The notes beneath the pieces were generated by a model. It worked only from the letters and a program-made list of their open reading frames with translations. It made no database searches and had not been told where the DNA came from. A DNA stretch of 49,804 bases from a virus. The position numbers and the translations under genes were made by a program. The DNA is taken from the IMG/VR virus record IMGVR_UViG_3300035070_003001, positions 1 through 49,804 of that record. One strand, given 5' to 3'. Below are positions 27,241 to 48,033 of this stretch, piece after piece (the stretch's first letter is position 1; each line of letters begins with the position of its first letter).

Positions 27241-27870
27241 ATGAAACTTACCGAAGCAAAATTAAAGAAACTTATCAACGAAGTATTGGAAGAGGGAATG
27301 AATACCGCCTCGATGCTTCCTGAAGATGTGTATGTGTTAGTTACTAGGAGAGCGGAGGGTTTTTACACCGTTGCTTATGCCGACAAGACAGGGAAAGTCA
27401 TCATGCCATGGACCTTGGAAGGAGTAGAGAATGACGTCTATGGAGACGTAAGCTTCTACACCAGCAGCTATGATAAGCGCCCATGTAGCGGCTCATCAAT
27501 TATCGCAGTGACAGAAGCCGCCAGTGGTTGGGGGCCTCTGTTATACGATGTAGCAATGGAAGCGGCCTCGGCAATGACTAAAGGTTTAACTCCAGATAGA
27601 AACGAAGTGTCTGATGAAGCACGCGGCGTTTGGGACATTTATAGCACCGCTCGCTCAGATGTCGATAAGACACAACTTGACAATGAATATGGCGACCTCA
27701 CACCAGACAATCCAGAAGACGATTGTTCTCAGCATTCAGCTAGAATGCATAGAGGAGAAGAGTGGGACAAGTCTTCATTGTCAAAAATGTACAGCAAAGA
27801 CCCGACAACTTTGAACCAACTTCGAGACGCAGGAAAGCTAATATTAAAACGAGTAAGTTTGAACTTTTAA
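27241..27870 (+). CDS. Tagged GNAT-like protein
   Basis: 209 residues. The first 16 residues (MKLTEAKLKKLINEVL) are the Lys/Leu-type N-terminal tag found on at least six other proteins here. The body contains SGWGPLLYDVAMEAAS, GLTPDRNEVSDEARGVWD and LTPDNPEDDC. These correspond to segments of the GNAT-like proteins at 45827-48033 (a helix after the acyl-CoA loop, GLTSD, and TPDPNDDC). It lacks the Arg of the acyl-CoA binding loop, so enzymatic activity is uncertain. It follows the resolvase gene by eight bases. This body type is widespread and uncharacterised in marine phages. Confidence 0.6.
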   Translation: MKLTEAKLKKLINEVLEEGMNTASMLPEDVYVLVTRRAEGFYTVAYADKTGKVIMPWTLEGVENDVYGDVSFYTSSYDKRPCSGSSIIAVTEAASGWGPLLYDVAMEAASAMTKGLTPDRNEVSDEARGVWDIYSTARSDVDKTQLDNEYGDLTPDNPEDDCSQHSARMHRGEEWDKSSLSKMYSKDPTTLNQLRDAGKLILKRVSLNF

Positions 27871-27871
27871 C

Positions 27872-27900
27872 TTGACAAACATTTCCAAACGTGTTACATT
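27872..27900 (+). promoter_or_regulatory. Sigma70-type early/middle promoter
   Basis: TTGACA (27872-27877), a 17-base spacer and TACATT (27895-27900), with TG one base before the -10. The sequence GTGTTACATTATAA is repeated almost exactly before the primase gene. It drives the nucleotidyltransferase gene at 27921. Confidence 0.8.
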
Positions 27901-27920
27901 ATAAATATCACGGAGGATAC

Positions 27921-28439
27921 ATGCAATACACAATTTTAATTCCCGGTGGCTTCAAACCACCTCACAAAGGTCACCATGACTATATCAAGTTCTATCTCGA
28001 TAATCCAGACGTAGAAAAGGTCATCTTGTTTTGCGGAGACAAGTCGAGAGATAACATCACGTTAGAGCAGACAGAAGCCGTTCTAAGCCTTTATGGACTG
28101 ATGGCACACCCCAAACTAGATTATCGCCGTGCGAAGCTTAGAGAGGGCAAGAAGAAGACCTACACGAACCCTTTGGCCGACTGCTTTGACTGGGGTGACG
28201 AGAATGAAGATAAGAAGTTCGGCTTAGGTTGTTCTGGTAAGGATTGTAACTATCAGGCATCGTTCGGCGATTACTTTTACGGAAATGAGAATTACGTAAC
28301 TGCTCCAATGTTTGAAATGGTTGATGACTTATCCGCAACAGACTTCCGAGAGGCGTTGAGAAATAATAGCCCAATCGCAAAGTTTTTACCAGATGGAGTA
28401 AGTGAAGAAGAAGTTGTGTCACTATTTAATAACATCTAG
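27921..28439 (+). CDS. Nucleotidyltransferase, NMNAT/cytidylyltransferase fold
   Basis: 172 residues. The start was placed at the ATG preceded by CGGAGG; an upstream in-frame ATG would lie inside the promoter. Residues 8-18 read PGGFKPPHKGH, the HxGH nucleotide-binding motif of the nucleotidyltransferase superfamily. Residues about 137-145 (SATDFREAL) match the C-terminal S.T..R motif of NMN/pantetheine-phosphate adenylyltransferases. Members transfer a nucleotidyl group to NMN, phosphopantetheine or similar acceptors, and an NAD salvage role (as in KVP40-type phages) is plausible. The insert at residues 70-125 with Cys pairs (FGLGCSGKDCNY) is unusual. The substrate cannot be read from sequence. 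Confidence 0.75.
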   Translation: MQYTILIPGGFKPPHKGHHDYIKFYLDNPDVEKVILFCGDKSRDNITLEQTEAVLSLYGLMAHPKLDYRRAKLREGKKKTYTNPLADCFDWGDENEDKKFGLGCSGKDCNYQASFGDYFYGNENYVTAPMFEMVDDLSATDFREALRNNSPIAKFLPDGVSEEEVVSLFNNI

Positions 28440-28451
28440 CGGAGAACTTAA

Positions 28452-29024
28452 ATGAAACTTACAAAAGAAACATTAAAACAAATTATCAAAGAAGAACTAA
28501 AAACAGTTCTCGACGAAGTAAGAATAAGACCTGTGCCACCATCAATCTTAAGTCCGGCACATGTAGAGAAAATTCATAGTTTAATCGATTCGGGTGATGA
28601 ATCGTTTATCGATATGGCCAAATCCCTGATTGATGGACTCGGTGGTGATCCAAGCTATGTTGACCAATATATCGAATATTGGCAACTTAGTGACGCAGGA
28701 GAAGAGTTCGACCCAAGCAAAGCTGACCCAAAGTTCAAACAACCATGGGGAGCCGAAAGCAGACAACCTACCATACCGGAAAGATTTAAAGAACGTTTTG
28801 GAATGAACCCACGTCAACTTATCTTAAAGCAGTTGGAAAAGGACTACGGTGAAGCACAAGCAGCGAATCGAAAAAAACGATTTGAGATTCGTGACTGGTA
28901 TATGAAAAGAGTGGAAGATTCAACTCGAGATTTAGAACTCATAGATCAAGGCCATGACCACTATCAGATTATGAAATTAAGAGATAAAAGGCTGAGCCAA
29001 GAGCCGCCAAGACCTGAATATTAA
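28452..29024 (+). CDS. Tagged protein with LID.LGGDP.YVDQY domain
   Basis: 190 residues. It begins with the tag MKLTKETLKQIIKEEL. Residues about 38-72 (VEKIHSLIDSGDESF, then AKSLIDGLGGDPSYVDQY) form a helical module shared with the tagged proteins at 43189 and 43644. The C-terminal half is charged and helical (ERFKERFGMNPRQL, then RKKRFEIRDWYMKRVED). No enzymatic motif is seen. Its tag suggests that it is packaged in the capsid, although the gene lies among replication genes. Ribosome binding site GCGGAG. Confidence 0.6.
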   Translation: MKLTKETLKQIIKEELKTVLDEVRIRPVPPSILSPAHVEKIHSLIDSGDESFIDMAKSLIDGLGGDPSYVDQYIEYWQLSDAGEEFDPSKADPKFKQPWGAESRQPTIPERFKERFGMNPRQLILKQLEKDYGEAQAANRKKRFEIRDWYMKRVEDSTRDLELIDQGHDHYQIMKLRDKRLSQEPPRPEY

Positions 29025-29033
29025 ACTTTCTAC

Positions 29034-29062
29034 TTGACAAACCTTCTGTGATGTGTTACATT
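29034..29062 (+). promoter_or_regulatory. Sigma70-type early/middle promoter
   Basis: TTGACA (29034-29039), 17 bases, TACATT (29057-29062), preceded by TG at -14. It is followed by ATAAACAGGAGG, so the primase mRNA leader would be very short. The element is almost identical to the one at 27872. Confidence 0.8.
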
Positions 29063-29079
29063 ATAAACAGGAGGACATT

Positions 29080-30040: not shown

Positions 30041-30062
30041 ATATAAAACAACGGAGGAGAAC

Positions 30063-31279: not shown

Positions 31280-32197
31280 ATGCTATTAGCCTTATTTTTG
31301 GCCTGCGGTGGAGACATCGGTATTAGAACAACAGAAAAGGTTCAAGTCTTGGACACATCTGTTGATGATACAGACATCACAACAGAAGCGTCCACAGAAC
31401 CATCATTAGAGCCTTCTAGTGAACCGGCTACCGAACCATCAACGGAACCGTCCAATGAACCTTTGGAGGGCACTGTTGGGCTTGTAAACTACAATCTAGA
31501 GCAAGTTGCCTGTTTACAATGCATGGGTGTGTCCCAAGAAATAACCATCCAGTTCGAAGCAAAGTTTCATGATAAAATAGGCGAGACACATCCAACATGG
31601 TATCCACCATCAGGACAGTGCGTAAACTCAATGAACCCTGTATCTATCTTCGTGCAAGGAAAGAACATTGGCTCATCAATCAACGTCTTCGGCAATCCGA
31701 ACTCGTTTACAGCCTTCAATAACAACTCGAACATCTACAGTGGGTTTTTGACGGAATCTCAATATGATCGAGACACTCAGATGAGCGTACAAACTCAAGA
31801 TGGAACATCGTTCCAATTCAGATCTATTCGTGGCTTTGACTTTATTGAACCTTATGAGATGCGTTATGTCGATCCGTCCTACGCCTTTGCAGCAGTTGTG
31901 TCAAAGTTTGGAACACAATTCTCATGGGGACCATCAGGAGGGCAGGACTTGTTCAACATCACAATCGCAACTTATTCCTCAGATGGAAGTCAACTTCTTG
32001 GCGTTGCATCATGCTCAGGTCCAGATAGTGGTTACATGTCTTTTGACGGCTCTTTCTTTCAAGCTTACCCTACGTGGTCTCTAACTGCAATACATATGAC
32101 AAGATTTTCTCAACAAAGAGTTCCCTATGAAGGTCTCAATGGCTATGTCGACGTACAACTAGAATGGTCTGTTGTGGGAACCGGTCACATCGAATAA
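31280..32197 (+). CDS. Putative lipoprotein with Glu-Pro-Ser linker
   Basis: 305 residues with an AGGAG ribosome binding site. A very short hydrophobic leader (MLLALFLAC) ends in Cys9, a lipobox-like site, though without the usual basic N-terminus and with Phe at -3. A linker of repeated EPS units (residues 39-61) follows. A beta-rich domain from residue 70 has a CLQC pair and ends with DVQLEWSV. Lipidation would place it on a membrane surface, where phage lipoproteins often block superinfection, but that role is inferred. The leader plus EPS linker resembles lipoproteins of Myxococcota and Bdellovibrionota. Confidence 0.6.
   Translation: MLLALFLACGGDIGIRTTEKVQVLDTSVDDTDITTEASTEPSLEPSSEPATEPSTEPSNEPLEGTVGLVNYNLEQVACLQCMGVSQEITIQFEAKFHDKIGETHPTWYPPSGQCVNSMNPVSIFVQGKNIGSSINVFGNPNSFTAFNNNSNIYSGFLTESQYDRDTQMSVQTQDGTSFQFRSIRGFDFIEPYEMRYVDPSYAFAAVVSKFGTQFSWGPSGGQDLFNITIATYSSDGSQLLGVASCSGPDSGYMSFDGSFFQAYPTWSLTAIHMTRFSQQRVPYEGLNGYVDVQLEWSVVGTGHIE
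31394..31462 (+). repeat. In-frame EPS repeat tract
   Basis: Seven tandem units of about nine bases coding Glu-Pro-(Ser/Ala/Leu) with Thr or Ser between them make up the linker of the putative lipoprotein. The DNA units vary in sequence, so this is a selected protein repeat and not recent slippage. Confidence 0.8.
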
Positions 32198-32894: not shown

Positions 32895-33578
32895 ATGCTT
32901 ATTTATTGTATATTATTCCCAAATGGAAAACGCTATGTTGGAAAAACTGAGTGCTCACTTGCAAAAAGACAGAAAGAGCACAGGCATCATTCAAAAAATG
33001 GGACAACTAGATTGTATAACGCAATAAGGAAATATGGCTGGGGTAATTTAGATTGGATTACACTAGAAGAATGTAAAAACGCAACAATACTCTCAGAAAG
33101 GGAGGTCGTGTGGATAGATAAATTTTCTTGCCTAGAGAGAGAGAAAGGGTATAACCTTCGTGAGGGAGGAGAAGGCGGCAGACATTCCGAAGAAACAAAG
33201 AAAAAGATATCCAAAGCAAATTTGGGAGAAAACAATGGAATGTATGGGAAACCTTCTTGGAATTCTGGTAAGAAGTTGTCGAAGTCTCACAGGGAGGCTC
33301 TGTCAAAAAGCCACAAAGGTCAAGATCCATGGAACAAAGGAAGGAGAGGCGAATACTCAACGGGACCTAGAAGCAGAGAATGTAAGGAAAAGATCTCCAA
33401 AGCAAACTCGGGCGAAAACAATGGCCAAGCAAAAATGACTTGGGAAGTCGTCAGGGCAATAAGAGAAGAGCACAAAACAACAAAAACAACACAAAAGAAA
33501 TTAGCCAAAAAATATAATGTTTCGCCTTATATGGTTTGGTCCATAGTCAATAACAAAAGATGGAGGAAAAATGACTAA
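32895..33578 (+). CDS. GIY-YIG homing endonuclease with NUMOD3 repeats
   Basis: 227 residues. The GIY-YIG nuclease domain covers residues 1-95: LIYC (2-5), KRYVG (12-16), Arg25 in SLAKRQKEH and Glu in LSEREVVWI. Three NUMOD3-type DNA-binding segments follow (TKKKISKANLGENNGMYGK, SHREALSKSHKGQDPWNKG, CKEKISKANSGENNGQ). The C-terminal helix-turn-helix is TQKKLAKKYNVSPYMVWSIV. Such enzymes cut phage genomes that lack the gene and so spread it. The end overlaps the start of the Mre11-Rad50 gene by eight bases and carries that gene's GGAGG ribosome binding site. Confidence 0.93.
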   Translation: MLIYCILFPNGKRYVGKTECSLAKRQKEHRHHSKNGTTRLYNAIRKYGWGNLDWITLEECKNATILSEREVVWIDKFSCLEREKGYNLREGGEGGRHSEETKKKISKANLGENNGMYGKPSWNSGKKLSKSHREALSKSHKGQDPWNKGRRGEYSTGPRSRECKEKISKANSGENNGQAKMTWEVVRAIREEHKTTKTTQKKLAKKYNVSPYMVWSIVNNKRWRKND

Positions 33579-36500
33579 GAAAAAAATGTTTAGAATAAGC
33601 CACATTAGTGACACACACATCAGAAACCTTAAATATCACGATGAATATCGTCACGTATTCAATCAAATCTATGACAGTCTAAAGCAAGAGCAACCAGACT
33701 ACATCGTCCACACAGGAGACTTGGCTCACACAAAGACGCAACTGTCCCCGGAGTACTTTGAAGTTGCTTCAAACTTCTTAAGGTCTTTAGCAGACATAGC
33801 TCCTACTATCATGATATTAGGTAATCATGACGGAAACTTAAAGAACGGAGACCGTCAAGATGCCGTCACTCCGATTATTGAAGCTCTGCAGCATCCCAAC
33901 TTTACCCTACTTAAAAACTCTGGAGAGTACTCTCCCGAGCCAGGAATAACATTTAACGTATTGTCAGTGTTTGATAGGGACAATTGGCAACAACCATCTG
34001 ATTCAAACTCTATCAACATAGCCTTGTACCATGGAGCTATCAAAGGTTGCCTCGTAGGTTCAGACTTCTCTCTTGATCATGGCGAAGATGATATCTCAAT
34101 ATTCTCATCTTTTGACTACTCTATGCTTGGAGATATCCACCGCACACAATTTTTAGATCAAGAGAGAAGAGTGTGGTATGCTGGATCCACAGTTCAACAA
34201 AACTTTGGAGAATCAGAATTGAAAGGTTATTTAATCTGGAATATTCACTCCAAGGATAAACATACAATCGACAAGAGGTTGTTTCGATCTCCTAGGCCGT
34301 TTATCACCGTCAACATCAATAAGGACGGTACTCTACCTAAGACAGACATTCCTAGAGGCGCAAGACTTAGATTGGTATCCAATTATAATTTGCCGGTTGC
34401 AAAGCTTAAAAGAGCATGTGACTATGCACAAGTGAAGTGGAGCCCATACTCTGTTAGTTTTGTTAACAAAGGATCTCGTGGATCTCTCGGAGGAGTTCTT
34501 GATGGTGCAACTGGAAAGTCAATCAACATGAGGGACGAGAAAAATCAAGAAAAGTTTCTGATAGATTTTTTAAAAAATAAAGAAATTGAGAAACAAGTGA
34601 AGGATCGTGTTCTAGAGTTGTCTCGAGAATATTTGAAAAAAGTAAATGGCGGAAGTGACGTTTCTAGAAATGTTTTATGGGATATACGTAAAATGACGTG
34701 GAACAATCTATTTAATTACGGAAAGGGAAATTCAATTGATTTCACTAAAGTTAATGGATTAGTGGGTATCTTTGGAAAAAATTACTCTGGTAAGTCATCA
34801 ATTATTGATGCTGCCTTGTTCGGCCTTTTCAATACGACGTCCAAAGGAGAAAGAAAGAATGTCCATATCATCAATCAAAACAAAGAAAGAGCTCTTTGTA
34901 AGCTCGAGATCGCTGTCGGCGATGATGTTTATAAAATTGCTAGAAGCCTCGAAAAAACAACCAGCAAGTCTAAAGGACGCGAAGTCGTCTCGGCGAAAAC
35001 TTCACTAGACTTCACAAAGCTAAATCTAGGAACTCACGAAGAATCCAAGAACGGTGATACTCGAAATCAGACTGACGAGAATATTCGTAAAACTTTTGGT
35101 ACACTGGAAGACTTTATGATGACCTCTTTGGCTGCTCAAAATGATTCTTTTGGTTTCATGAATGAAGGCTCTACGAAGCGTAAAGAGATACTAGCAAAAT
35201 TTTTAGATCTACAGATATTTGATCAAATGCATAAATTAGCCAAGTCTGATTCATCAGAGATGCGTGGCGTCATAAAGCACTTGAACTCTGTTGACTGGCA
35301 AAAAAAGCTATCTCGAGCAAAGGCTGAGTTTTTAGAGATTGTCGAAGACATTGATAATCAACAGTCCTTGTGTTCTAAGCACACCGCTAGATTATCTGAC
35401 CTCACAGGAGAACAGCGTCTGATACAAGATCAAGTTGAAGCCGCATCACAAAGAGAAATAGATATTGATGATGTAAAATTGTCCCTTTCAAAGTCTCAAA
35501 AATCGCTTCTAAAGAACTCTAAAGACATAGAGAGCCTCTCTAGCGAAGTAAACTCTAAACGCAAGCAGATCGAAGATTTAAACCTCAGATTGCCAAGCCT
35601 GCTCGAAGAATCAACTAGAGCAAGAGAAGAGTTGCAATCATTAGAAAAACTCAAAAGTCTAATAAGTGACACCCACAAGTCCGTTGAGAAAGCAAAGCGA
35701 GAAAAATCTAGGCTACAGTCCAAGATAGATATGCTGCATGACCACGAGTATGACCCAGATTGTAGCTTCTGTAGCAACAACGAGTTTGTCAAGAAAGCAG
35801 AAGAGGCAAAGGTCACAATTGTAGATGTTACCCAAAACATAGAGAGCCTTAACTCTCAAATGTTGGACTTGAAAATGAAAGCATCGCTTTTCAACGAAGT
35901 TTATTTAGAAGCAGTTGTTCGAGACTATGAGGTTCAACGCGACACATTAGCTAGGGAACAATCTGAGGTTCGTAATATGTCTTTAAAGCTGGAAAACTGC
36001 GAAGGAAAAGTTTCATTGATGGTACGGCGCATCAAAGATCTTGAAGCAGATATCGCCTACTACAACGATAATATCGAAGCTTACGAAAATCTTACTTCAT
36101 TACGCAGAGATCTTAAAGCCATCAGCAAAACTATCTCAATCAAAGAAACTGAGATAAGCCGGTGTCAATCTAAAGTTCTTGAGTTCATGTCCGAGAAAGG
36201 ATCTGCCAAGAGAACCATAGAGGAAGCAGAAGAGCGTATTAAGCAAATCAAAGATGCAGAAAGAGATTACATTGCTTATGACTTGTTTGTGCAGGCCACG
36301 CATGCAAATGGTATCTCATATGAGGTCATCAAATCTATGATGCCTGTGATAAACGAAGAGGTGCAAAAAATACTTGCTTCTATTGTTGATTTTCAAGTAT
36401 TTTTTGACAACGACGGCGACAAGCTAGAAGTATATCTCCAACATCCTAAATATGATCCGCGACCATTATCTATGGGTTCTGGTGCAGAGAAGACCATCGC

Positions 36501-37853: not shown

Positions 37854-38221
37854 TGAGTAAAGATCCAAATTACGCTGCAAAGGTTGAGAAAGCCATTGCG
37901 GAAAAATACGGCAAAGAAGCCGTGGAGAATCCCAAGTCCAAATGGGACGATGAAAAAGAAAAAGAATATCTAGCTGAACTGAAGTCAAACTATCGCAACG
38001 ATAAAACAGAAAGCAAAAGAGTTGAGCTTGGGAGTGTTTTAATCTCAAAAGAACTACTTAATAGAGAATCCGAGCGTTCATGTCCAACTTGTAACACTTA
38101 TTCATTTAAATCCGTTGATGATCTTTACATGACGAAATTTGAATGTTGCTACAAATGTTATATTCAATGGATAGAAGGTCGGGAAGAAAGATGGAAAAAA
38201 GGTTGGAGACCAAACAAATGA
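37853..38221 (+). CDS. Conserved zinc-ribbon protein, unknown
   Basis: 122 residues, TAATG overlap with the gene before. The N-terminus (MSKDPNYAAKVEKAIAEKYG) is charged and helical. The C-terminus has CPTC (about 80-83) and CCYKC (about 101-105), four cysteines that should bind zinc, followed by IQWIEGREERW. The family is frequent beside terminase genes in marine T4-like phages and has no known role. A packaging or head function is suggested by context only. Its TGA overlaps the ATG of the next, tagged gene. Confidence 0.6.
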   Translation: MSKDPNYAAKVEKAIAEKYGKEAVENPKSKWDDEKEKEYLAELKSNYRNDKTESKRVELGSVLISKELLNRESERSCPTCNTYSFKSVDDLYMTKFECCYKCYIQWIEGREERWKKGWRPNK

Positions 38222-38490
38222 AACTTACAAAACAAACATTAAAACAAATTATCAAAGAAGAACTGGACGCAATGTTGAGTGAAGAACAAGTTGATGTGAA
38301 AGTTAGAAACTTTCCTAGTAACTCTGGTGAACCACGTTACTTTGTTAAAGTAGGTGATAAATTTTATCAAACACAAGAGAGTGTCGCGAAAGACATCGAA
38401 CAAAATGGCTATGACCCAAAGAAGCATGATTATGATATGTCAGAAGTGTCTGATGAGATGCTAATGAAAATAGCACCAAAAATGAAATAA
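38218..38490 (+). CDS. Small tagged protein, unknown
   Basis: 90 residues. The start at 38218 is set by the ATGA overlap and by the tag MKLTKQTLKQIIKEEL, whose DNA is nearly the same as in the genes at 28452 and 39069. After the tag and a short acidic linker there is a compact domain of 60 residues (RYFVKVGDKFYQTQESVAKDI) with no recognised relatives. A candidate capsid-packaged protein. Confidence 0.6.
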   Translation: MKLTKQTLKQIIKEELDAMLSEEQVDVKVRNFPSNSGEPRYFVKVGDKFYQTQESVAKDIEQNGYDPKKHDYDMSEVSDEMLMKIAPKMK

Positions 38491-38511: not shown

Positions 38512-39072
38512 ATGAGTAAAGAAACATTAGAAATTATACAGGGACTTTCCCAAGCAGCAGCCAACGGTTCATACGATGGCGGTCAACACATGGAAAACTA
38601 CTCACACGACGGACAAGTTCGCAAGACTGGTCTTATGCGAGAAGAAGGAATTCCTCTTCTCGACAAGCGCTGCATTGACGGCTTCAAAGTCAAGTTCTAC
38701 GGAGACTCAATGATCATTAATTATCAATCTGATGTTATGATGAGAGATTTCAAAGACGATGGTTTTGAAAACGAAATTGTTCAAACCATCAATGAAGTAA
38801 AAAAGTTCTTACAAAAAGAATATAAAACCATTACCGGCAAATCCGTTTCCTTAACTGCAAAAGGTGAGCCTCAAATGATTGTACAAACTACATCTAGAGT
38901 TCGCACATTTGTACAAGCATATCAGCATTATAAAATTGGTGGGTTGAGCATGGACGGCATAGGGCAACCATCAGAACCAACCGTTCGAGACATTACAAAG
39001 AAATTTTTAGAGACCGCAAAAGCAAAGCGTCCTCAAAATGAAAAAATTAACCCAAAGGATAATCAAAAATGA
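38512..39072 (+). CDS. Conserved phage protein near terminase, unknown
   Basis: 186 residues, preceded by ATAGGAAACAAGAAG. The N-terminus (MSKETLEIIQGLSQAAANG) and the core (GIPLLDKRCIDGFKVKFYGD, SRVRTFVQAYQHYKIGGL) belong to a family common in marine T4-like phages, always close to terminase and portal genes. No catalytic motif or DNA-binding motif is plain. A head or packaging role (for example neck or small-terminase function) is possible, but the sequence does not show it. The TGA overlaps the start of the next gene. Confidence 0.55.
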   Translation: MSKETLEIIQGLSQAAANGSYDGGQHMENYSHDGQVRKTGLMREEGIPLLDKRCIDGFKVKFYGDSMIINYQSDVMMRDFKDDGFENEIVQTINEVKKFLQKEYKTITGKSVSLTAKGEPQMIVQTTSRVRTFVQAYQHYKIGGLSMDGIGQPSEPTVRDITKKFLETAKAKRPQNEKINPKDNQK

Positions 39073-39683
39073 AACTTACAAAAGAAACATTAAAAAAACT
39101 CATCAAAGAAGAATTGGAAGCTGTTATGAATGAGGGGGAATACCGTCACAGCGGTAGAGACGCCGCAGCGGAGCGTGGAGTTCACGGTCTAGGAAAGCAT
39201 TCAGCTGATGACATGGAAAAGAAGAGAAGAGCAGGTGCAGCAGCAGACGGTGCGCAATCAAGAGACAATGCTGCGATCAATGCTCGTGCAGATCAATTAG
39301 TCAAAGAAATGATGTCTGATGCTCAAAAAGAAATTATGGAAAATGTTCTGAGTAGTTATTATGGACGATTGTTGCAAAAACATGCATCAAAGTACGTTAG
39401 TGACATTAGAGATGCTTTGGTTAAAAATAAGATCTGGAGATTGCGAGAACTAGAAAACATTTCCGGATCAAGATCGAGTGGCGATGCTACTGGTGAAGAA
39501 GTGGACGGATACATTTCAGCCTCAGCGTCTGAGGCGATCAAGGGATATGAAAGAGTTAAAAAAAGAGCTCAAAAGAAAGCCCAAGCTGAAGTTTCTGGAG
39601 GTTCTGACGGGTCAAATAAGAAAAGATCCTTCATGCAAAAAGCAGGAAGCTTCGTGACTGGAAAAGGATTTCGCGAGGAATAA
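39069..39683 (+). CDS. Tagged helical protein, unknown
   Basis: 204 residues, starting in an ATGA overlap with the tag MKLTKETLKKLIKEELEAV. Residues 30-75 are Ala/Arg/Gly-rich and probably disordered. Residues 75-170 form a helical region (KEIMENVLSSYYGRLLQKHA). The end is basic (KKRAQKKAQAEV, then NKKRSFMQKAG). Basic, small and tagged fits a DNA-associated internal head protein like T4 internal proteins, but no sequence relation is seen. The next gene, terminase, starts at once with GTG. Confidence 0.55.
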   Translation: MKLTKETLKKLIKEELEAVMNEGEYRHSGRDAAAERGVHGLGKHSADDMEKKRRAGAAADGAQSRDNAAINARADQLVKEMMSDAQKEIMENVLSSYYGRLLQKHASKYVSDIRDALVKNKIWRLRELENISGSRSSGDATGEEVDGYISASASEAIKGYERVKKRAQKKAQAEVSGGSDGSNKKRSFMQKAGSFVTGKGFREE

Positions 39684-41261
39684 GTGAAACTCACCAAAAA
39701 TGAAATCGTTAAAGAACTTGTAAAGTGCGGAAAAGATCCTCAATATTTTATTGATAATTATTGTAAGATCTCGCACCCTATGCATGGTCAAATTCCTTTT
39801 AAGACTTATGACTATCAGAAAGACATGCTCAAGAGCTTTAACGATTATCGTTTTAACGTAATTTTAAAAGCAAGGCAGCTCGGGATCTCAACCATTTCGG
39901 CTGCTTATGTTGCTTGGTTCATGTTGTTCCACCGAGAAAAGAACGTTCTCGTAATCGCAACAAAGTTATCTACAGCAGTGAACCTCGTAAAGAAGGTTAA
40001 AATGATCTTCAAGAACCTTCCTCCATGGATGATGATTGCGAAAATTGCTACAGACAACAAGCAATCATTCGAGTTAACAAACGGTTCTCAAGTTAAAGCT
40101 GGAACCACATCAGGTGACGCTGGTCGTTCAGAGGCTTTGTCACTTCTCATTATTGACGAGGCAGCGTTCGTTGACGGCCTTGATGAGCTTTGGACGGGTC
40201 TTTACCCTACTTTGTCTACAGGGGGACGCTGCATAGCTCTGAGCACCCCTAACGGCGTTGGAAACTGGTTTCACAAAACCTACTCCGAGGCTGAGACGGA
40301 AATGAATGATTTTTTCCCAACCAAATTAAATTGGGACGTACATCCAGATAGAGACGACGCTTGGTTCGAAAAAGAAACAAGAAACATGTCTAAACGCCAA
40401 ATAGCTCAAGAGCTTGAGTGTTCATTTAATGCTTCTGGTGAAACAGTGATTAACCCAGAGGATCTTCAAAGGATTCATGAATTAATAGTCGACCCAGAAT
40501 ATAAAACAGGATATGACCGCAATTTTTGGATCTGGGAAAGATATGAGGATACATGTCCATACCTTCTTGTAGCAGATGTTGCGCGAGGTGATGGCGCAGA
40601 TTTTAGTTGCTTCCATATACTAAGAGTGGACACTATGACAGTCGTAGCTGAATACCAAGGTAAGCCTGATCTTGACATGTACGCTGATATATTATTCTCA
40701 GCAGGTAGAGAATATGGCAACTGTTTGTTGGTGGTTGAAAATAATGGAATTGGTATAGCTGTTTTGGAAAAGTTAAAAGAACTGCAGTATCCAAAAATTT
40801 ACTATTCTATCAAATCTACTCATGAATATGTAGAGTCTTATTTGGCCGAGAATGACGACAGAGCAGTGCTTGGCTTCACAACCTCGACTAAGACAAGGCC
40901 GCTAATTGTAGCCAAATTGGAGGAGTACGTTAGAAACAAACTAATTAATATACACTCCAATCGTGTTTTTCACGAACTAAAAACTTTTATTTGGCACAAC
41001 GGCAAGCCTCAAGCAATGCGCTCTTACAATGATGATTTGGTTATGTCCCTCGCAATAGCATGTTGGGTACGCGACACAGCCCTCTCAGAAAATGAAAGAG
41101 ACATGGCATACAAAAAGGCGATGTTAAATGGTTTGATGAAGTCTACAACGACTATGAATACTCAAATCAAAGGCCAAAAGATTTATAAAGAGACGTTCGC
41201 CGAAAAACACGAAGAGGAGATAAAAAAAGCAAAAGAATTTTTGTGGATATACAAAGGATAG
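39684..41261 (+). CDS. 17: Large terminase subunit, gp17-like
   Basis: 525 residues, GTG start directly after the previous TAA. The N-terminal ATPase has a degenerate Walker A, KARQLGISTIS (about 61-71), Walker B LLIIDEAAFVD (about 153) and the coupling motif ALSTPNGVGNW (about 182). The C-terminal RNase H-like nuclease has LVADVARGDGADFS (about 294), VVENNGIGIAV and YNDDLVMSLAIA (about 448). The protein cuts concatemeric DNA and drives it into the prohead through the portal, whose gene follows. Its own N-terminus, MKLTKNEIVKELVKCG, partly resembles the tag. No small terminase subunit is recognised. Confidence 0.95.
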   Translation: MKLTKNEIVKELVKCGKDPQYFIDNYCKISHPMHGQIPFKTYDYQKDMLKSFNDYRFNVILKARQLGISTISAAYVAWFMLFHREKNVLVIATKLSTAVNLVKKVKMIFKNLPPWMMIAKIATDNKQSFELTNGSQVKAGTTSGDAGRSEALSLLIIDEAAFVDGLDELWTGLYPTLSTGGRCIALSTPNGVGNWFHKTYSEAETEMNDFFPTKLNWDVHPDRDDAWFEKETRNMSKRQIAQELECSFNASGETVINPEDLQRIHELIVDPEYKTGYDRNFWIWERYEDTCPYLLVADVARGDGADFSCFHILRVDTMTVVAEYQGKPDLDMYADILFSAGREYGNCLLVVENNGIGIAVLEKLKELQYPKIYYSIKSTHEYVESYLAENDDRAVLGFTTSTKTRPLIVAKLEEYVRNKLINIHSNRVFHELKTFIWHNGKPQAMRSYNDDLVMSLAIACWVRDTALSENERDMAYKKAMLNGLMKSTTTMNTQIKGQKIYKETFAEKHEEEIKKAKEFLWIYKG

Positions 41262-41264: not shown

Positions 41265-43199
41265 ATGGCCCGTAACGAAAGAAACCCGAATAATAATAAG
41301 AATGATTTGTTCAAATCTTTAACAAGAATATTCTCAGGTCCGATGACCCAACGAAGAACACAATCTGGGAGACAACTTAGACGGCGGCATTTAGACATCT
41401 ACGCAAAGCGTTTCAAGTCAGCCTCAGGACAACAGTTCAAAAAGACTGAATATAACCCGATGAACATCATGACGCTCAACATGATTTCAAACAGAAATCG
41501 ATCAGAGCGATATGTTGATTTTGATCAAATGGAGTTCACGCCTGAGATTGCATCTTCTTTAGATATTTATGCAGACGAGATGACCACTCACTCAGCCTTG
41601 AATCCAATGTTACATATCAAGTGTCCAAATGATGAAATTAAATACATACTACATTCTCTATACTACAATGTAATGAATATCGAACACAACCTCTTTGGTT
41701 GGGCAAGAACCATGTGTAAGTACGGAGACATGTTTTTGTATCTTGACCTTGACGAAGAAAAAGGTTTGCAAAATTGTATCGGACTACCTCCTCAAGAAGT
41801 CGAGAGACTTGAGGGCGAAGATCCAACAAATCCAAATTACGTACAATTCCAATGGAACTCAGCGGGCCTAACTCTAGAGAATTGGCAAATGGCTCACTTT
41901 CGTGTTCTTGGAAACGACAAGCATGCCCCGTACGGAACATCTGCATTAGAGCCCTCCAGACGCATCTGGAGACAGCTTACGCTTCTCGAAGACGCAATGA
42001 TGGCCTATCGTATTACACGATCGCCAGAGCGCCGTGTGTTCAAGATTGACGTTGGCGGAATTGCTCCTCAAGATGTTGAACAATACATGCAGAAAGTTAT
42101 GACACAAATGAAACGACATCAAGTTGTTGATCCGACCACCGGTCGCGTAGATTTACGCTACAACCCTCTTTCGATTGAGGAAGACTACTTTGTCCCGATC
42201 AGAGGTGGACAGTCCTCTACGAACATTGAGAACCTTCCTGGTGGACAATTCACGGCACAGATCGAAGACGTTAAGTATCTTCGAGACAAATTATTCTCAG
42301 CATTAAAAGTTCCACAATCTTACCTATCAATGGGTGAAGGCGCAACTGAAGATAAGACAACCTTAGCTCAGAAAGACATCCGCTTCGCAAGAACCATTCA
42401 AAGACTGCAAAGAGTTTTGATTTCTGAATTAGAAAAGATTGGCATCGTACACTTATACACTCTTGGCTATCGAGGAGACGACTTGTTAAACTTTAAATTA
42501 AGCCTTAACAATCCATCGAAGATTGCTGAGATGCAAGAGCTTGAGCATTGGAAAACCAAGTTTGATATTGCTGGAGCTGCAACTGAAGGATATTTCTCTC
42601 GGCGCTGGGTTTCCGAAAATCTTCTGGGACTATCTCAAGACGAATATTTAAGAATGCAAAGAGAGATGTTTACTGATAAAAAGTTCATGGCGGAACTCGA
42701 AGCAGCCGCTCAACCACCAGAAGAAGGCGGTGGCGACTTAGGCGGAGGAGACTTAGGCGGAGATGACCTGGGTGGAGACTTGGGAGGCGATGACCTAGGA
42801 GGTGACCTGGGCGGAGACGATCTTGGTGATGACTTGGGTGGAGCTGATGAGCCTGCTGCAAGTGGTGGAGATGAACCTGACTTGCTAGCTGAACCTCCTG
42901 CTAAACGCGATGACGATGCGAAGCCAAAAAAGAGAGGTCCATACAAGAAGCACAAAATTTCCTATCGCAAAGGTGGATTTTCGAAACAAATGAAAAACCA
43001 AGCCTTTAGCGGAGAGGTCCGAGGATCTACAGCAAGAACAACATTTCCGGGAAAAGTAGGTTTTGGAGGAGTGGATTCTTTGTCTAGAGCGATTTATGAA
43101 CAGAACGAAAATGAAGAAGACAAGCTATTTAATACCAGCGCAGGACTAAAAACCCTGCTAGAATCACTAAACAAAAAGGAAAATCCAAATGAAACTTAA
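41265..43199 (+). CDS. 20: Portal vertex protein, gp20-like
   Basis: 644 residues. The core (RYVDFDQMEFTPEIASSLDIYADE, from about residue 80; PHAPYGTSALEPSRRIWRQL; YFVPIRGGQSSTNIENLPGG; KVPQSYLSMGEGATEDKTTLAQKDI) is the conserved portal of T4-like phages. The portal forms the twelve-fold ring through which DNA enters and leaves and to which the neck binds. Residues about 488-540 are a Gly-Asp-Leu repeat and the end is basic, an extension absent from T4 gp20 (524 aa). Stop overlaps the next tagged gene by 11 bases. Confidence 0.93.
   Translation: MARNERNPNNNKNDLFKSLTRIFSGPMTQRRTQSGRQLRRRHLDIYAKRFKSASGQQFKKTEYNPMNIMTLNMISNRNRSERYVDFDQMEFTPEIASSLDIYADEMTTHSALNPMLHIKCPNDEIKYILHSLYYNVMNIEHNLFGWARTMCKYGDMFLYLDLDEEKGLQNCIGLPPQEVERLEGEDPTNPNYVQFQWNSAGLTLENWQMAHFRVLGNDKHAPYGTSALEPSRRIWRQLTLLEDAMMAYRITRSPERRVFKIDVGGIAPQDVEQYMQKVMTQMKRHQVVDPTTGRVDLRYNPLSIEEDYFVPIRGGQSSTNIENLPGGQFTAQIEDVKYLRDKLFSALKVPQSYLSMGEGATEDKTTLAQKDIRFARTIQRLQRVLISELEKIGIVHLYTLGYRGDDLLNFKLSLNNPSKIAEMQELEHWKTKFDIAGAATEGYFSRRWVSENLLGLSQDEYLRMQREMFTDKKFMAELEAAAQPPEEGGGDLGGGDLGGDDLGGDLGGDDLGGDLGGDDLGDDLGGADEPAASGGDEPDLLAEPPAKRDDDAKPKKRGPYKKHKISYRKGGFSKQMKNQAFSGEVRGSTARTTFPGKVGFGGVDSLSRAIYEQNENEEDKLFNTSAGLKTLLESLNKKENPNET
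42727..42846 (+). repeat. GGDLGGDD repeat tract in portal gene
   Basis: Imperfect direct repeats of 12-24 bases (GGCGGAGATGACCTGGGT-like) code for GGDLGG and GGDDLGG units near the portal C-terminus. The acidic, flexible tract is likely to vary in length between relatives by slippage or recombination. Confidence 0.85.
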
Positions 43200-43647
43200 T
43201 AAAGAAACACTTAAACAAATCATTAAAGAAGAGCTTGACGCTGTCATGAATGAGACGATGACCGTACCTCCAATTGGAGGAAACATAACACCAGAACAGC
43301 AGCAGAAAATTGATGAACTAATCCGATCTAATAATCCAGAGGATGTGAATTTTGCTAAATCATTGGTGGATGCGCTAGGTGGAGATCCAGAATATGTTGA
43401 AAGAATTTTGGCTATAGATTACGAAGGGATTACATCTTTGGCTCATCAACAGAGAGATGTTATTGATACCTTCCCCGATCCTAAGGATGCAACACCTCAA
43501 GATCATAGAGATGCCTACAGTGCGACATCAAACTATGATGGAGATGCTCGACAGAGAATAGCAGACAAATACTCTGACACACCAGAACAGGCAAGACGTG
43601 CAGGACGCATGTATAACAATGCTATGAACTCGAGGATCCGTAGATGA
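43189..43647 (+). CDS. Tagged protein with LVDALGGDP.YV module
   Basis: 152 residues starting inside the end of the portal gene. Tag: MKLNKETLKQIIKEELDAVMNE. Residues about 45-75 (KIDELIRSNNPEDVNFAKSL, VDALGGDPEYVERI) are the helical module shared with the proteins at 28452 and 43644. The rest is charged and polar with no known motif. It lies in a row of three small tagged genes between portal and scaffold-region genes, the place where T4-like phages keep head-core and internal protein genes. Confidence 0.6.
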   Translation: MKLNKETLKQIIKEELDAVMNETMTVPPIGGNITPEQQQKIDELIRSNNPEDVNFAKSLVDALGGDPEYVERILAIDYEGITSLAHQQRDVIDTFPDPKDATPQDHRDAYSATSNYDGDARQRIADKYSDTPEQARRAGRMYNNAMNSRIRR

Positions 43648-44132
43648 AACTTAACAAACAAACACTAAAACGAATTATAAAAGAAGAGCTCGACGCAGTT
43701 ATGAATGAAACAAGAATTAAACCAGACTTAACTGGTATTCCCGATGAGTATGTTGAAAAAATAAATTCGCTCATTGACGATGGCGAGGTTGCACAAGCAT
43801 CATCACTGATCGATGCCCTAGGGTTTGATCCAAACTATGTTGACCAATATAGAGAGTATCAACAAGTTGGAGACATAGAGAAACTAGGAAACAAAATGAG
43901 AGATTTATACGCAAGCCATGGTGGATCAGACTCATATGAGTATTTGGGTCATCCGTTCCACGATGAAGTGGATAAAATCCAAGGTCAGATTGATGATTTG
44001 GCCCAAGAGAAAGCAGATGCTTATGGTAACCCAATAATTCCGGGTGACCAAAAATCTTTCGATGACGCCGTTCGAACGCGTCAAATTCAAAGAAATCGAA
44101 GAGGTGGTTTAAAAGTCGGACCAAAAAAATAA
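43644..44132 (+). CDS. Tagged protein with LIDALGFDP.YVDQY module
   Basis: 162 residues, ATGA overlap with the previous gene. Tag: MKLNKQTLKRIIKEELDAVMNE, identical over its last eight residues to the tag before it. Residues about 36-70 (YVEKINSLIDDGEVAQASSL, IDALGFDPNYVDQY) carry the shared helical module. The C-terminal 80 residues are unlike those of its sister. Tandem duplication followed by divergence of the C-terminus is the simplest reading. Confidence 0.6.
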   Translation: MKLNKQTLKRIIKEELDAVMNETRIKPDLTGIPDEYVEKINSLIDDGEVAQASSLIDALGFDPNYVDQYREYQQVGDIEKLGNKMRDLYASHGGSDSYEYLGHPFHDEVDKIQGQIDDLAQEKADAYGNPIIPGDQKSFDDAVRTRQIQRNRRGGLKVGPKK

Positions 44133-44145: not shown

Positions 44146-44427
44146 ATGAAACTAAGCAAAGAAACATTAAAAAGAATTATCAAAGAAGAGTTTGATAGAC
44201 TAAGTGAAGGTATGTTTTCTCCGACTGAAATATACATGGACTTTCAGAGACAAGGTGGTCGGGATTATTGGTTATCTAAAGCACATGGGATGGATATGAA
44301 GTATTCAGATTTTATGCATGCTGACCAAGCACTTAAAGCCTACATTGATGAGATCAACCCATCCTTAAATGATATGCCCCAAAATGTTTGGAGTCAAATA
44401 ACGCAACTAATTAATGACACAGTATAA
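44146..44427 (+). CDS. Small tagged protein, unknown
   Basis: 93 residues with an AAGGAAAC ribosome binding site. Tag: MKLSKETLKRIIKEEF. The rest (TEIYMDFQRQGGRDYWLSKA, then DFMHADQALKAYIDEI) is predicted helical with no known domain. It is the third tagged gene in a row after the portal. Confidence 0.55.
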   Translation: MKLSKETLKRIIKEEFDRLSEGMFSPTEIYMDFQRQGGRDYWLSKAHGMDMKYSDFMHADQALKAYIDEINPSLNDMPQNVWSQITQLINDTV

Positions 44428-45260: not shown

Positions 45261-45834
45261 TGTTAAAATCTCTAGCGAGAAAGATCAGGAAATACAACTA
45301 CCTAAAGAAAAGACTGTGAAGATAGAGATTGTAAATAAGGACAAAGTAAATTTTAAGTTAATGTCCCGCTCGGCTATAAATGGAGATATTATGATTTTAG
45401 ACCATAAAGATATCGACATTGTAATAAGTCAAGACAAGGGAAAAATAATAACGTTTGCGAAAGAAACTTTGTCAGATTTTACTTATGGCGCCGAAGCTAG
45501 ACTTCTTGAGTTCATGAGAAGAAAGGGAATTCTAGAATATAATTCCATCAAAGGTGGAAACATTTATGGATCTCTAGAGGGACAGTTGATGACGTCTGCT
45601 GAGACTGATGTCAACAAAGTTGCTTTATTGGTTATATCTGAGTGGATGACAACTGAGGAGTCCTACATAAAAGGTACAACAGCGTACGATGATGTGCAAG
45701 ATGACCATCTAGTTTCACCAGATGGAGAGTACTCTACTGAATTTGGCGAAGTGCCACACGAAGAAGAGAAAGGCTCGATAAGGCAACAAAACCTGTTCGC
45801 CCCGTATATGTATGGTAGGTACACTTATGAGTAG
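45250..45834 (+). CDS. Conserved head-region protein, unknown
   Basis: 194 residues. The N-terminal half is beta-rich (SAINGDIMILDHKDIDIVIS, GKIITFAKETLSDFTYGAEA), while the end is acidic and ends in FAPYMYGRYTYE. The family accompanies the previous protein in marine T4-like phages and is uncharacterised. A head-assembly role is inferred. It overlaps the first GNAT-like gene by eight bases. Confidence 0.5.
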   Translation: MSINVKISSEKDQEIQLPKEKTVKIEIVNKDKVNFKLMSRSAINGDIMILDHKDIDIVISQDKGKIITFAKETLSDFTYGAEARLLEFMRRKGILEYNSIKGGNIYGSLEGQLMTSAETDVNKVALLVISEWMTTEESYIKGTTAYDDVQDDHLVSPDGEYSTEFGEVPHEEEKGSIRQQNLFAPYMYGRYTYE

Positions 45835-46582
45835 TCAAAAACTTATCATGGAAAGCTGGAGACGGTTTCTAAAAGAAGAAGACGAAAGAGGCGAGCGCTT
45901 AGATCCAAAAGATGTTTGCCTAGCTTCTTATATCACACCTGGTTCCGATGCTACGTTTATATTGTATCGTCGCGGCAAAGGAGAGACAGTTGAAGACCAA
46001 TTTGATAATCTATCGATCATTGGATCAATATGGATAGAAAGCCTTAAAGAGGAGGGCCCTTGTCTCTCCGGTGATGGTCGAGGACCAGCCTGGCACGTAA
46101 AAGCAGTTCACACCGCTCCTTCACACAGGAGAGTTGGATATTCAAACGAGTTATATGGTTTTGCATTTTTGATTGCAAAACAAAACAATGCCGCATTAAC
46201 CTCAGACAAGCATGCTGGGACAAAACCCAAGGCCATCATGAAGTGGAAAGGCTTCGAAAAAAACACTTCAACATACGAAAAGGCATCAACAAGCAAGCCC
46301 TATAGTTCTACTGAATTTGACTATGATGGATCAACTCCTGATCCGAAAGATGATTGTGCTACCATAATTGTTGGAGATGATCCAGACAATGGCACTGACT
46401 CTGCTTTTGTGCACAAAAACCCAGAGATTTACGAAGACATAATGGTCTCATACGAGGCGAACCACCAACAGTTTCTAAGTGAACTGTTGCCAACAGAGTG
46501 GGTGACGGAGCGTGAGTTTACAATAGAGTTAGCGGAAAAAGAAGACGACAGCTTCAACAACGCGTTTCCGGAGGAAAAATGA
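45827..46582 (+). CDS. Tagged GNAT-like protein 1 of 3
   Basis: 251 residues from the ATG at 45827, which keeps the overlap with the previous gene small; an ATG five codons earlier is possible. Tag: SSQKLIMESWRRFLKEE. The centre (VKAVHTAPSHRRVGYSNELY) has the R-x-x-G acyl-CoA loop and following helix of GNAT acetyltransferases. AALTSDKHAGTKPKAIMKW and TPDPKDDC follow, shared with its two neighbours. GNAT enzymes transfer acyl groups from acyl-CoA to amines. Target unknown. The tag suggests delivery in the virion. Confidence 0.65.
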   Translation: MSSQKLIMESWRRFLKEEDERGERLDPKDVCLASYITPGSDATFILYRRGKGETVEDQFDNLSIIGSIWIESLKEEGPCLSGDGRGPAWHVKAVHTAPSHRRVGYSNELYGFAFLIAKQNNAALTSDKHAGTKPKAIMKWKGFEKNTSTYEKASTSKPYSSTEFDYDGSTPDPKDDCATIIVGDDPDNGTDSAFVHKNPEIYEDIMVSYEANHQQFLSELLPTEWVTEREFTIELAEKEDDSFNNAFPEEK

Positions 46583-47325
46583 TAAACCAAAAGCTTATCA
46601 TGGAAGGATGGAGAGAGTTCCTAGGACTAGTCGACAAGAAAAAAACTAGCGACTTTAATCTAGCACAGACGTGCATGATCGTACTAGGTCAAAAAGGGTC
46701 CAGAAAGAAAATAATTCTATACAATCCTAGAGAGTTTACAGAGCTGTCACGCGATGACATGAGAGAGAATGGACAATACAAAGAAGCAGAAATTATTGGG
46801 GGCATAGACCTTGTGCTTTCCACTAAAATCTCGCCCGAACCATGCATAGCAAACACGTACCAAATCACGGCAATCTATGTCACAGATGCCTACAGAGGGA
46901 AGGGACTTCAAAAACAACTAATGGACATCGCTTTCTATATGGTCTCTGAGGAGGGCGCCGGATTAACTTCAGACCATCATTATGGTACGAGACCCAAGGC
47001 TGGTGGAGCATGGAAGAAAATTGAAAAAAGCCCAGACTATGAAAAGAAGACGACAAATAAAGGAAACGATACTTTTGACTACGAAGATGCCACACCAGAC
47101 CCAAACGATGATTGCAATAACCCATCAAGAGATCCCGCCGCGACTGATCATAGCTTCGAAAAGAAATCAAACTCTATAGGCAAAAAACTGTTCGATGATT
47201 ACAAAGCAAATCACAAAGTAATAACTGACTTCTTGAAGAGTAAGTTTATGAAAATTGATAACTTTGAATATACCATGGCAGATATTTCTGATAATAAATT
47301 CAGAGATGCATATGCCGATAGCTAA
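46579..47325 (+). CDS. Tagged GNAT-like protein 2 of 3
   Basis: 248 residues, ATGA overlap with the previous gene. Tag: NQKLIMEGWREFLG. Residues about 97-116 (YVTDAYRGKGLQKQLMDIAF) are the best GNAT motif A of the three, with R-G-K-G. GAGLTSDHHYGTRPKAGGAW and TPDPNDDC follow. The C-terminal 65 residues (SFEKKS, then LFDDYKANHKVITDFL) are shared with the third copy. Clearly a paralogue of its neighbours, though well diverged. Confidence 0.7.
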   Translation: MINQKLIMEGWREFLGLVDKKKTSDFNLAQTCMIVLGQKGSRKKIILYNPREFTELSRDDMRENGQYKEAEIIGGIDLVLSTKISPEPCIANTYQITAIYVTDAYRGKGLQKQLMDIAFYMVSEEGAGLTSDHHYGTRPKAGGAWKKIEKSPDYEKKTTNKGNDTFDYEDATPDPNDDCNNPSRDPAATDHSFEKKSNSIGKKLFDDYKANHKVITDFLKSKFMKIDNFEYTMADISDNKFRDAYADS

Positions 47326-47337
47326 TGGGAGGGCAAC

Positions 47338-48033
47338 ATGAAACAAAAACTTATAATGGAAGGATGGCGAAAATTTCTTCTGAATGAAAACATTGTATCT
47401 GAGGGTATATGCCTCTATCATCATGGCGCAGGCAGGCCCAATCAAAGAATCATCCTATACAAACCTGTTGAGGATACGCAAATTAAAAGCAGATTATTCT
47501 TGGACACTATTATAGTTGGTGCGATTTTATTTCAAAATACTGATAGCGTAGTGAACGAGCCGTGTATTCCGGAGACATTCCAAGTCAGCACAATCTTCAC
47601 ACACAAGGACTATGAAGGTCAAGGGTTTCAAAAGCTAATGATGGATTGCGCTTTCTATGTTTTAGGAAAAGAAGGGAAAGGCTTAACATCAGACCAAGAT
47701 ACAGGCACAAAAGACAAAGCCGCTCGTGCATGGGACAAGATTGAAAATTCCTCAGAATACAAAAAAAGAGAGACAGATGACGGTAACAACATGTTTGACT
47801 ATACGGATCAAACAGATGATCCCAATGATGATTGTAGCATGCCTAGCCAACATCCAGCTACCACTCACAGCTTTGAGAAGCGGAACGCATCCAGCATCCA
47901 ACCGCAATATGATAGTATGAAAAACAATCACATAAATTTTCTTAAGAAAATAGGTAGAGACAAGGGAGCATTCAACAACATGTTGAAAAATAGATCTCGA
48001 GCAGATTTTATAGAAAGATATTCGGGGCTTTAA
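47338..48033 (+). CDS. Tagged GNAT-like protein 3 of 3
   Basis: 231 residues, preceded by GGGAGGG. Tag: KQKLIMEGWRKFLLNE. Motif A is FTHKDYEGQGFQKLMMDCAF: the Arg that contacts the CoA pyrophosphate in most GNATs is Glu here, so this copy may have lost or changed activity. GKGLTSDQDTGTKDKAARAW, DDPNDDC and a C-terminal SFEKRN/NHINFLKK region match copy 2. Its stop overlaps the next start (TAATG). Confidence 0.68.
   Translation: MKQKLIMEGWRKFLLNENIVSEGICLYHHGAGRPNQRIILYKPVEDTQIKSRLFLDTIIVGAILFQNTDSVVNEPCIPETFQVSTIFTHKDYEGQGFQKLMMDCAFYVLGKEGKGLTSDQDTGTKDKAARAWDKIENSSEYKKRETDDGNNMFDYTDQTDDPNDDCSMPSQHPATTHSFEKRNASSIQPQYDSMKNNHINFLKKIGRDKGAFNNMLKNRSRADFIERYSGL

What the first reader, a model, noticed from the sequence alone, without database searches (positions are those of the whole stretch)
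27241..48033. Two families of conserved N-terminal tags on at least eleven proteins: probable capsid-targeting sequences
Seen: seven proteins (starts 27241, 28452, 38218, 39069, 43189, 43644, 44146) begin with M-K-L-(T/N/S)-(K/E)-x-x-L-K-x-(I/L)-I-(K/N)-E-x-(L/F). Four others (25591, 45827, 46579, 47338) begin with (K/G)LIMExWRx(F/Y). Apart from a few subfamilies, the rest of these proteins are unrelated. Known: T4 packages Alt and internal proteins through short N-terminal capsid-targeting sequences that the gp21 protease removes after (Ile/Leu)-x-Glu. Both tags contain such a site (I-K-E or I-N-E; I-M-E), and a gp21-type protease is encoded here. Inferred: the tags send cargo into the prohead, are cut off, and leave a set of head-packaged, possibly injected, proteins. 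Two tag types might bind different core proteins or mark different positions. Such leaders are common in marine phage proteins but, to my knowledge, have no established role.
Basis: partly seen in the sequence, partly recalled or inferred. Interest (0 to 1): 0.88.

Follow-up and report, generated by a model that had tools for sequence, protein, structure and literature searches.

The report
Interchangeable head-packaging tags on phage proteins
Eleven otherwise mostly unrelated proteins of this uncultured marine T4-like phage start with one of two short address labels that match, at the positions shown by experiment to matter, the T4 signal that loads proteins into the phage head and is then cut off, so hundreds of nameless marine phage proteins are probably cargo carried in the head and delivered into the host cell.

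Summary

Best reading: lineage-specific capsid-targeting sequences (CTS) of the T4 kind. In T4 IPIII, residues 4 and 7 direct targeting and 8 and 10 processing (PMC9026906). The same spacing, hydrophobic-x-x-hydrophobic-hydrophobic-x-E, is kept in 98% of 497 tag-1 and 66% of 156 tag-2 leaders, against about 1% after shuffling.

Tags are interchangeable: one acetyltransferase-like family carries tag 1 or tag 2, in this window too; one 2H-phosphoesterase-like family carries tag 1, tag 2 or none. 654 tagged bodies form 417 clusters.

Corrections: the cut is probably at the distal L-x-E, and two destinations are unlikely.

New: the protein after gp21 carries three tandem CTS-like cores.

Virion presence and cleavage remain untested.

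The parts
27241..27306 (+). tag 1 MKLTEAKLKKLINEVLEEGMNT, on a member of the acetyltransferase-like family (gene 27241-27870)
28452..28517 (+). tag 1 MKLTKETLKQIIKEELKTVLDE (gene 28452-29024)
38218..38283 (+). tag 1 MKLTKQTLKQIIKEELDAMLSE (gene 38218-38490)
39069..39134 (+). tag 1 MKLTKETLKKLIKEELEAVMNE (gene 39069-39683)
43189..43254 (+). tag 1 MKLNKETLKQIIKEELDAVMNE (gene 43189-43647; paralogue of 28452 and 43644)
43644..43709 (+). tag 1 MKLNKQTLKRIIKEELDAVMNE (gene 43644-44132)
44146..44208 (+). tag 1 MKLSKETLKRIIKEEFDRLSE (gene 44146-44427)
25591..25638 (+). tag 2 MKYGLIMENWRQYQAL; atypical, no distal L-x-E (gene 25591-26613)
45827..45877 (+). tag 2 MSSQKLIMESWRRFLKE on an acetyltransferase-like protein (gene 45827-46582)
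46579..46629 (+). tag 2 MINQKLIMEGWREFLGL on a GNAT-like acetyltransferase (gene 46579-47325); low-confidence helix ahead of a well-predicted body
47338..47388 (+). tag 2 MKQKLIMEGWRKFLLNE on an acetyltransferase-like protein (gene 47338-48033)
48479..49108 (+). gp21-type prohead protease (Peptidase_S77), with its own N-terminal LLTE site
49109..49534 (+). conserved protein right after gp21; N-terminus has three tandem CTS-like cores LKPLIKE / VKEVIFE / LSGIISE; candidate prohead-core protein
   Evidence: no Pfam match
41265..43199 (+). T4-type portal protein (gp20), used to collect relatives
39684..41261 (+). large terminase; its VKLTKNEIVKEL start is not a tag

Best explanation
The leaders are capsid-targeting sequences of the T4 kind. 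A short N-terminal helix with the spacing hydrophobic-x-x-hydrophobic-hydrophobic-x-Glu recruits each cargo protein to the growing prohead core. The gp21-type protease then cuts after L/I-x-E, most likely at the distal site, and frees the body inside the head, from where it would be injected with the DNA. Tag 1 holds two such cores in tandem and tag 2 one core behind an L-I-M-E extension. They are alternative labels for the same compartment and can be swapped between proteins. Shown: the leaders, their modularity, their match to the T4 functional positions, and their association with the protease. Inferred: packaging, cleavage and injection.
For: (a) T4 IPIII residues 4 and 7 (targeting) and 8 and 10 (processing), from PMC9026906, map onto tag-1 positions 8, 11, 12, 14 (pattern kept in 98% of 497) and tag-2 positions 7, 10, 11, 13 (66% of 156); within-tag shuffles give 0.6% and 1.3%. 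T4 IPII and IPIII start MKTYQEFIAE|A. (b) L/I/V/M-x-E is fixed at set positions (tag 1: 98% at 14, 67% at 21/22; tag 2: 91% at 5, 69% at 13), against 0-5%, mostly 1-3%, further downstream. (c) Swaps: L099 ...AVLGE|GGVAYSGVVLDE versus L326 ...YTLTE|AIAYSGVVLDE, with untagged L525 MNISYSGIVL. The GNAT-like family carries either tag. (d) 153 tags in 0.73 Mb of T4-like DNA, 0 in 1.58 Mb of two other groups. 19 of 36 tagged records encode S77, all 16 with Gp23 among them; the other 17 are fragments sharing genes with T4-like records. The 484 kb phage LR756508 has both tag-like leaders and S77. (e) The core is enriched at N-termini in the window (OR 28), G023 (11), G032 (8), G026 (3.9), LR756508 (31) and immuto (5.9), and not in the two control groups. 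(f) Capsid-protein leader regions of the clade end LLRE|A, LLRE|S or similar. (g) AlphaFold gives the leaders low confidence ahead of confident bodies.
Against: No virion proteome was found for this clade and no cultured phage with close copies was found. The final cut site is ambiguous: 25591 and 46579 lack the distal site. A 20-letter log-odds comparison of the two tag profiles showed no similarity (p about 0.5); only BLOSUM62 (p 0.017) and reduced-alphabet (p 0.002) versions did. The core is not significantly enriched in T4 as a whole, in P-SSM4 or in RM378, although all three encode S77. T4-type late-promoter motifs are not enriched upstream of tagged genes.
Confidence: 0.84

Rival explanations
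1. The leaders are amphipathic helices that dock the proteins on the host membrane or on another assembly (replication site, tail, phage compartment) during infection and are never cut.
For: Both tags have an amphipathic helical pattern with hydrophobic moments of 0.37 and 0.49, and a helix alone would give similar hydrophobic spacing.
Against: It does not explain the invariant Glu at L/I-x-E, the loss of conservation right after it, homologous bodies starting right after the distal site, the match to the T4 functional positions or the confinement to gp21-bearing phages.
Confidence: 0.08
2. The leaders are recombination or translation cassettes: a shared 5' DNA segment that helps genes be captured or expressed, with no role for the peptide.
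For: Within the window, identical residues of tag 1 use different codons in only 31% of pairs against 60% expected, so the leader DNA has partly been copied between genes.
Against: Across 497 distinct leaders the protein pattern is kept with sharply position-specific residues. Two different peptides serve the same families. DNA copying explains how leaders spread, not why these residues are kept.
Confidence: 0.04
3. The tagged proteins are prohead-core (scaffold) components consumed during maturation, like T4 gp67, gp68 and gp22, rather than delivered cargo.
For: Some tagged proteins are small and acidic, one lies directly beside gp21 in relatives (G023 16921, G026 106024, G032 37826), and the neighbouring 49109 protein carries three cores.
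Against: Bodies include enzymes (GNAT, 2H phosphoesterase, NUDIX, AAA_33 and guanylate kinases, protein kinase, exonuclease) and are far too diverse for scaffold (417 clusters). Probably true of a minority.
Confidence: 0.1

Closest known systems
T4 capsid-targeting sequence of IPI, IPII, IPIII and Alt (Mullaney and Black 1996; PMC9026906, PMC3012670, PMC12373910)
   Same: Short N-terminal leader on unrelated small proteins; same functional spacing (T4 residues 4, 7, 8, 10); ends at L/I-x-E before the body; phage encodes S77 protease gp21; bodies hyper-variable.
   Different: Different sequence, two leader types of 16-22 residues instead of 10, tandem cores in tag 1, about 11-22 cargos per genome instead of a few, and enzyme-rich cargo.
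Propeptides of phiKZ-like giant phage head proteins (SPN3US gp245 substrates, PMC10052503)
   Same: N-terminal propeptides cut by a prohead protease, sometimes at several sites; head-packaged and ejected proteins.
   Different: Most are 111-254 residues long and not one short shared label; these phages are not in the clade studied here.
Leader families of Flavobacterium phage immuto (FDLKKFLVENKLT..., MKKSQLRQIIKEAL...)
   Same: T4-like phage with S77; repeated N-terminal leaders containing the same core.
   Different: Different leader sequences; no functional data found.

Membership tests
T4-type capsid-targeting sequence (CTS) | At the extreme N-terminus of several otherwise unrelated proteins | tested here: met
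   11 of 11 in the window; 654 distinct bodies in 417 clusters
T4-type capsid-targeting sequence (CTS) | Hydrophobic residues at the positions of T4 residues 4, 7, 8 and Glu at 10 | tested here: met
   98% of tag 1, 66% of tag 2; shuffles 0.6% and 1.3%; window genes 25591, 46579 and 47338 deviate
T4-type capsid-targeting sequence (CTS) | gp21 consensus L/I-x-E at the boundary to the body | tested here: met
   which of the two sites is used is unresolved
T4-type capsid-targeting sequence (CTS) | Encoded by phages with a gp21-type (S77) prohead protease | tested here: met
   16 of 16 tagged records with Gp23 also have S77; two groups without tags, none found with S77 in the records tested
T4-type capsid-targeting sequence (CTS) | Leader is separable from the body | tested here: met
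   tag swaps and untagged homologues
T4-type capsid-targeting sequence (CTS) | Directs packaging into the head | not testable with these tools
   needs virion proteomics or a reporter fusion
T4-type capsid-targeting sequence (CTS) | Removed by the protease in mature heads | not testable with these tools
   needs N-terminal mass spectrometry
GNAT acetyltransferase (body of 46579) | GNAT fold | tested here: inconclusive
   best fold matches in the list shown are all GNATs (E 4e-4, probability 1.0) but TM-scores are only about 0.2-0.5; weak Pfam match 0.0027
2H phosphoesterase (body in L522, L099, L326) | Two H-x-T motifs and 2H fold | tested here: met
   both motifs invariant in 17 sequences; model pLDDT 91, top fold hits CNPase 2H domain, TM about 0.6

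The most novel reading that the evidence does not exclude
A large uncultured marine T4-like clade runs an open-ended cargo-delivery system: two interchangeable head-targeting labels, built from tandem repeats of the T4 CTS core and mirrored by a three-core protein encoded next to gp21 that may organise the core, load a dozen or more rapidly exchanged enzymes per genome (2H cyclic phosphodiesterase, polynucleotide-kinase-like, NUDIX, acetyltransferase-like, kinase). These are injected with the DNA to disarm host defence or repair RNA before phage genes are expressed.
Probability: 0.4. Interest if true: 0.85.

Novelty: new variant of a known kind. Interest (0 to 1): 0.72.

Why it matters
A leader readable from sequence alone would assign a place, the phage head and probably the injected load, to hundreds of marine phage proteins that now have no function. 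It extends the CTS principle from a few T-even anti-restriction proteins to a cargo system of about 11-22 proteins per genome with recognisable enzymes, and it gives a way to list candidate injected anti-defence proteins in uncultured phages. It also gives a consensus (hydrophobic-x-x-hydrophobic-hydrophobic-x-E) that can be tested in cultured relatives such as Flavobacterium phage immuto and cyanophages.

Tried and rejected
Similarity of tag 1 and tag 2 by 20-letter log-odds profiles: negative (p about 0.5). BLOSUM62 and reduced-alphabet tests are positive at one register, so I call the tags analogous in spacing and do not claim homology. Tag 1 as a homologue of the 49109 N-terminus: HMM scores not distinctive; only the core pattern is shared. 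T4 late-promoter motif upstream of tagged genes: absent or not enriched. Searching named phages with the tag peptides: no close isolate; tag-2 hits were chance matches in Microviridae capsid proteins, tag 1 hit only LR756508. The GNAT-like protein has no relative in the phage collection. Virion proteomics for immuto: no paper held. Terminase 39684 starts VKLTKNEI but lacks the core and is not counted. An early idea that the two sites of both tags share a spacing of 8 as one common design was dropped, because the best register aligns tag-2 FLxE with tag-1 IIKE.
Full report
OBSERVATION. The window is a 49,804-base IMG/VR fragment of a T4-like phage, with large terminase (39684), gp20 portal (41265) and gp21-type protease (48479; Peptidase_S77 2.6e-33; PHROG 207). 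All seven tag-1 and four tag-2 leaders are present at the stated starts and nowhere else in six frames. Sixty order-5 Markov simulations of the window give no tag 1 and at most one tag 2. Ten of the eleven proteins have no good Pfam or PHROG match; 46579 has a weak GNAT match.

DISTRIBUTION. Eighty relatives collected by the portal alone hold 117 tag-1 and 36 tag-2 leaders in 0.73 Mb. Near-complete records G023, G026 and G032 (162-190 kb) carry 22, 11 and 14 tagged genes, mostly in a few clusters.

CO-OCCURRENCE WITH THE PROTEASE. Of 36 tag-1 records of at least 35 kb, 19 encode Peptidase_S77, none encodes the HK97-type S78 protease, and every one of the 16 with a T4-type major capsid protein (Gp23) also has S77. 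The other 17 are fragments. Most hold close homologues of the window's structural genes and end before the head genes. The rest share genes with near-complete T4-like records; G014 shares only a few. Two unrelated phage groups, selected by a Pelagibacter phage HTVC010P terminase and a Cellulophaga phage phi38:1 DNA polymerase, contain no tag in 1.58 Mb at the same thresholds. Their type phages, and three of their contigs, have no S77. LR756508, a 484 kb uncultured phage, has 12 tag-1-like hits in 50 kb, most of them leaders, and S77.

MATCH TO THE T4 SIGNAL. In T4, ten residues of IPIII suffice for packaging; residues 4 and 7 matter for targeting, 8 and 10 for processing (PMC9026906). The T4 record gives MKTYQEFIAE|A for IPII and IPIII. 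The corresponding pattern, hydrophobic-x-x-hydrophobic-hydrophobic-x-E, is kept at positions 8-14 in 98% of tag 1 and at positions 7-13 in 66% of tag 2, against 0.6% and 1.3% after shuffling residues within the tags. Five of the seven window tag-1 leaders hold this core twice in clean tandem (for example LKQIIKE-E-LDAVMNE). A stricter core with K/R/Q in second place is enriched in the first 20 residues of proteins of the window, its relatives, immuto and LR756508. It is not enriched in the two control groups, nor significantly in T4, P-SSM4 or RM378. Immuto has its own leader families with the same core, such as FDLKKFLVENKLT.

WHERE THE LEADER ENDS. L/I/V/M-x-E occurs at fixed positions (tag 1: 98% at 14 and 67% at 21/22; tag 2: 91% at 5 and 69% at 13) and at 0-5%, mostly 1-3%, further downstream. 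Homologous bodies start just after the distal site: MKITNEQLKQIIKEELSAVLGE|GGVAYSGVVLDE (L099) and MKLLFENWRQYTLTE|AIAYSGVVLDE (L326), with untagged MNISYSGIVL (L525). Some tag-2 variants keep only the distal half, for example KSYKLHKNFRKFLLNE. In the 28452/43189/43644 family Glu22 is invariant while the bodies diverge. Capsid-protein leader regions of the clade end in LLRE|A, LLRE|S and similar. The proximal site is the most conserved residue block of tag 1, and giant-phage propeptides can be cut at several sites (PMC10052503), so both may be used.

ONE COMPARTMENT, TWO LABELS. Window gene 27241 (tag 1) belongs to the same family as 45827, 46579 and 47338 (tag 2), with seven invariant columns across 36 sequences. 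Five clusters of bodies hold both tags. Untagged homologues exist too: the window's own 27891 protein is related to a tag-2 protein in L318. This argues against two destinations. Within the window the tag-1 DNA is more alike than codon usage predicts (31% against 60% different codons), so leaders have partly been copied between genes.

CARGO. 654 distinct bodies form 417 clusters, 337 of them singletons. Among 98 representatives Pfam finds AAA_33, GNAT, NUDIX, guanylate kinase, protein kinase, RNase_T, cytidylyltransferase and pentapeptide repeats in a minority; most have no match. Two predictions: the 46579 body has GNAT-like fold matches with low TM-scores. The L522 body is a 2H phosphoesterase with pLDDT 91, two invariant H-x-T motifs and CNPase as top fold match. 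2H enzymes include the phage anti-CBASS protein Acb1 (PMC9117128, found; the link is my inference). T4 Ip1-3 are injected inhibitors of type IV restriction enzymes that share only their leader (PMC12373910).

A NEIGHBOUR WITH THE SAME CORE. The gene directly after gp21 (49109-49534, no Pfam match) starts with three cores, LKPLIKE, VKEVIFE and LSGIISE. Of 42 distinct homologues, 35 have three and seven have two, against 0 of 2,104 control ORFs with three. By position and composition it is a candidate prohead-core protein; this is inference, and tag 1 is not demonstrably homologous to it.

VERDICT. Lineage-specific capsid-targeting sequences of the T4 kind, confidence 0.84. Shown: presence, conservation, modularity, boundary, protease association. 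Inferred: packaging, cleavage and injection. The kind of system is known; the scale, the two swappable labels, the tandem cores and the enzyme-rich cargo are new as far as the held literature shows.

Noticed in passing
window 49531-49728: A ribosomal protein bS21 gene (Pfam Ribosomal_S21, 1.8e-8) two genes after gp21; a similar small gene sits at the same position in relatives G023, G026, G032 and G010.
   Followed up: partly
window 33571-36747: A single 1,058-aa protein joins a calcineurin-like phosphoesterase and an SMC-like ATPase, as if T4 gp47 and gp46 (SbcD/SbcC) were fused.
   Followed up: no
window 32895-33578: A protein with NUMOD3 repeats, probably a homing endonuclease, inserted upstream of the SbcCD-like gene.
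   Followed up: no
window 42700-42960 (C-terminal part of gp20): The portal protein has a low-complexity GGDLGGDDLGG repeat insert near its C-terminus.
   Followed up: no
window 31280-32197: A probable lipoprotein-like ORF with a low-complexity EPS(T)EP repeat stretch near its N-terminus.
   Followed up: no
L087 (Flavobacterium phage immuto), 13807, 21676, 27632, 28633: Immuto carries a repeated leader FDLKKFLVENKLTxNS and a leader RMQKLAGIITE, which may be its own head-targeting labels.
   Followed up: partly
L176:8654-11419 and homologues L201, L328: Very large (about 900 aa) tag-2 proteins; L176 has no convincing Pfam or PHROG match. Possible multi-domain cargo.
   Followed up: no
L577-L586 (Microcystis phage Mel-JY01): Two proteins start MIKLKSLL[QK]E|IISDRVWHLTT, a short CTS-like leader on paralogous bodies.
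   Followed up: no
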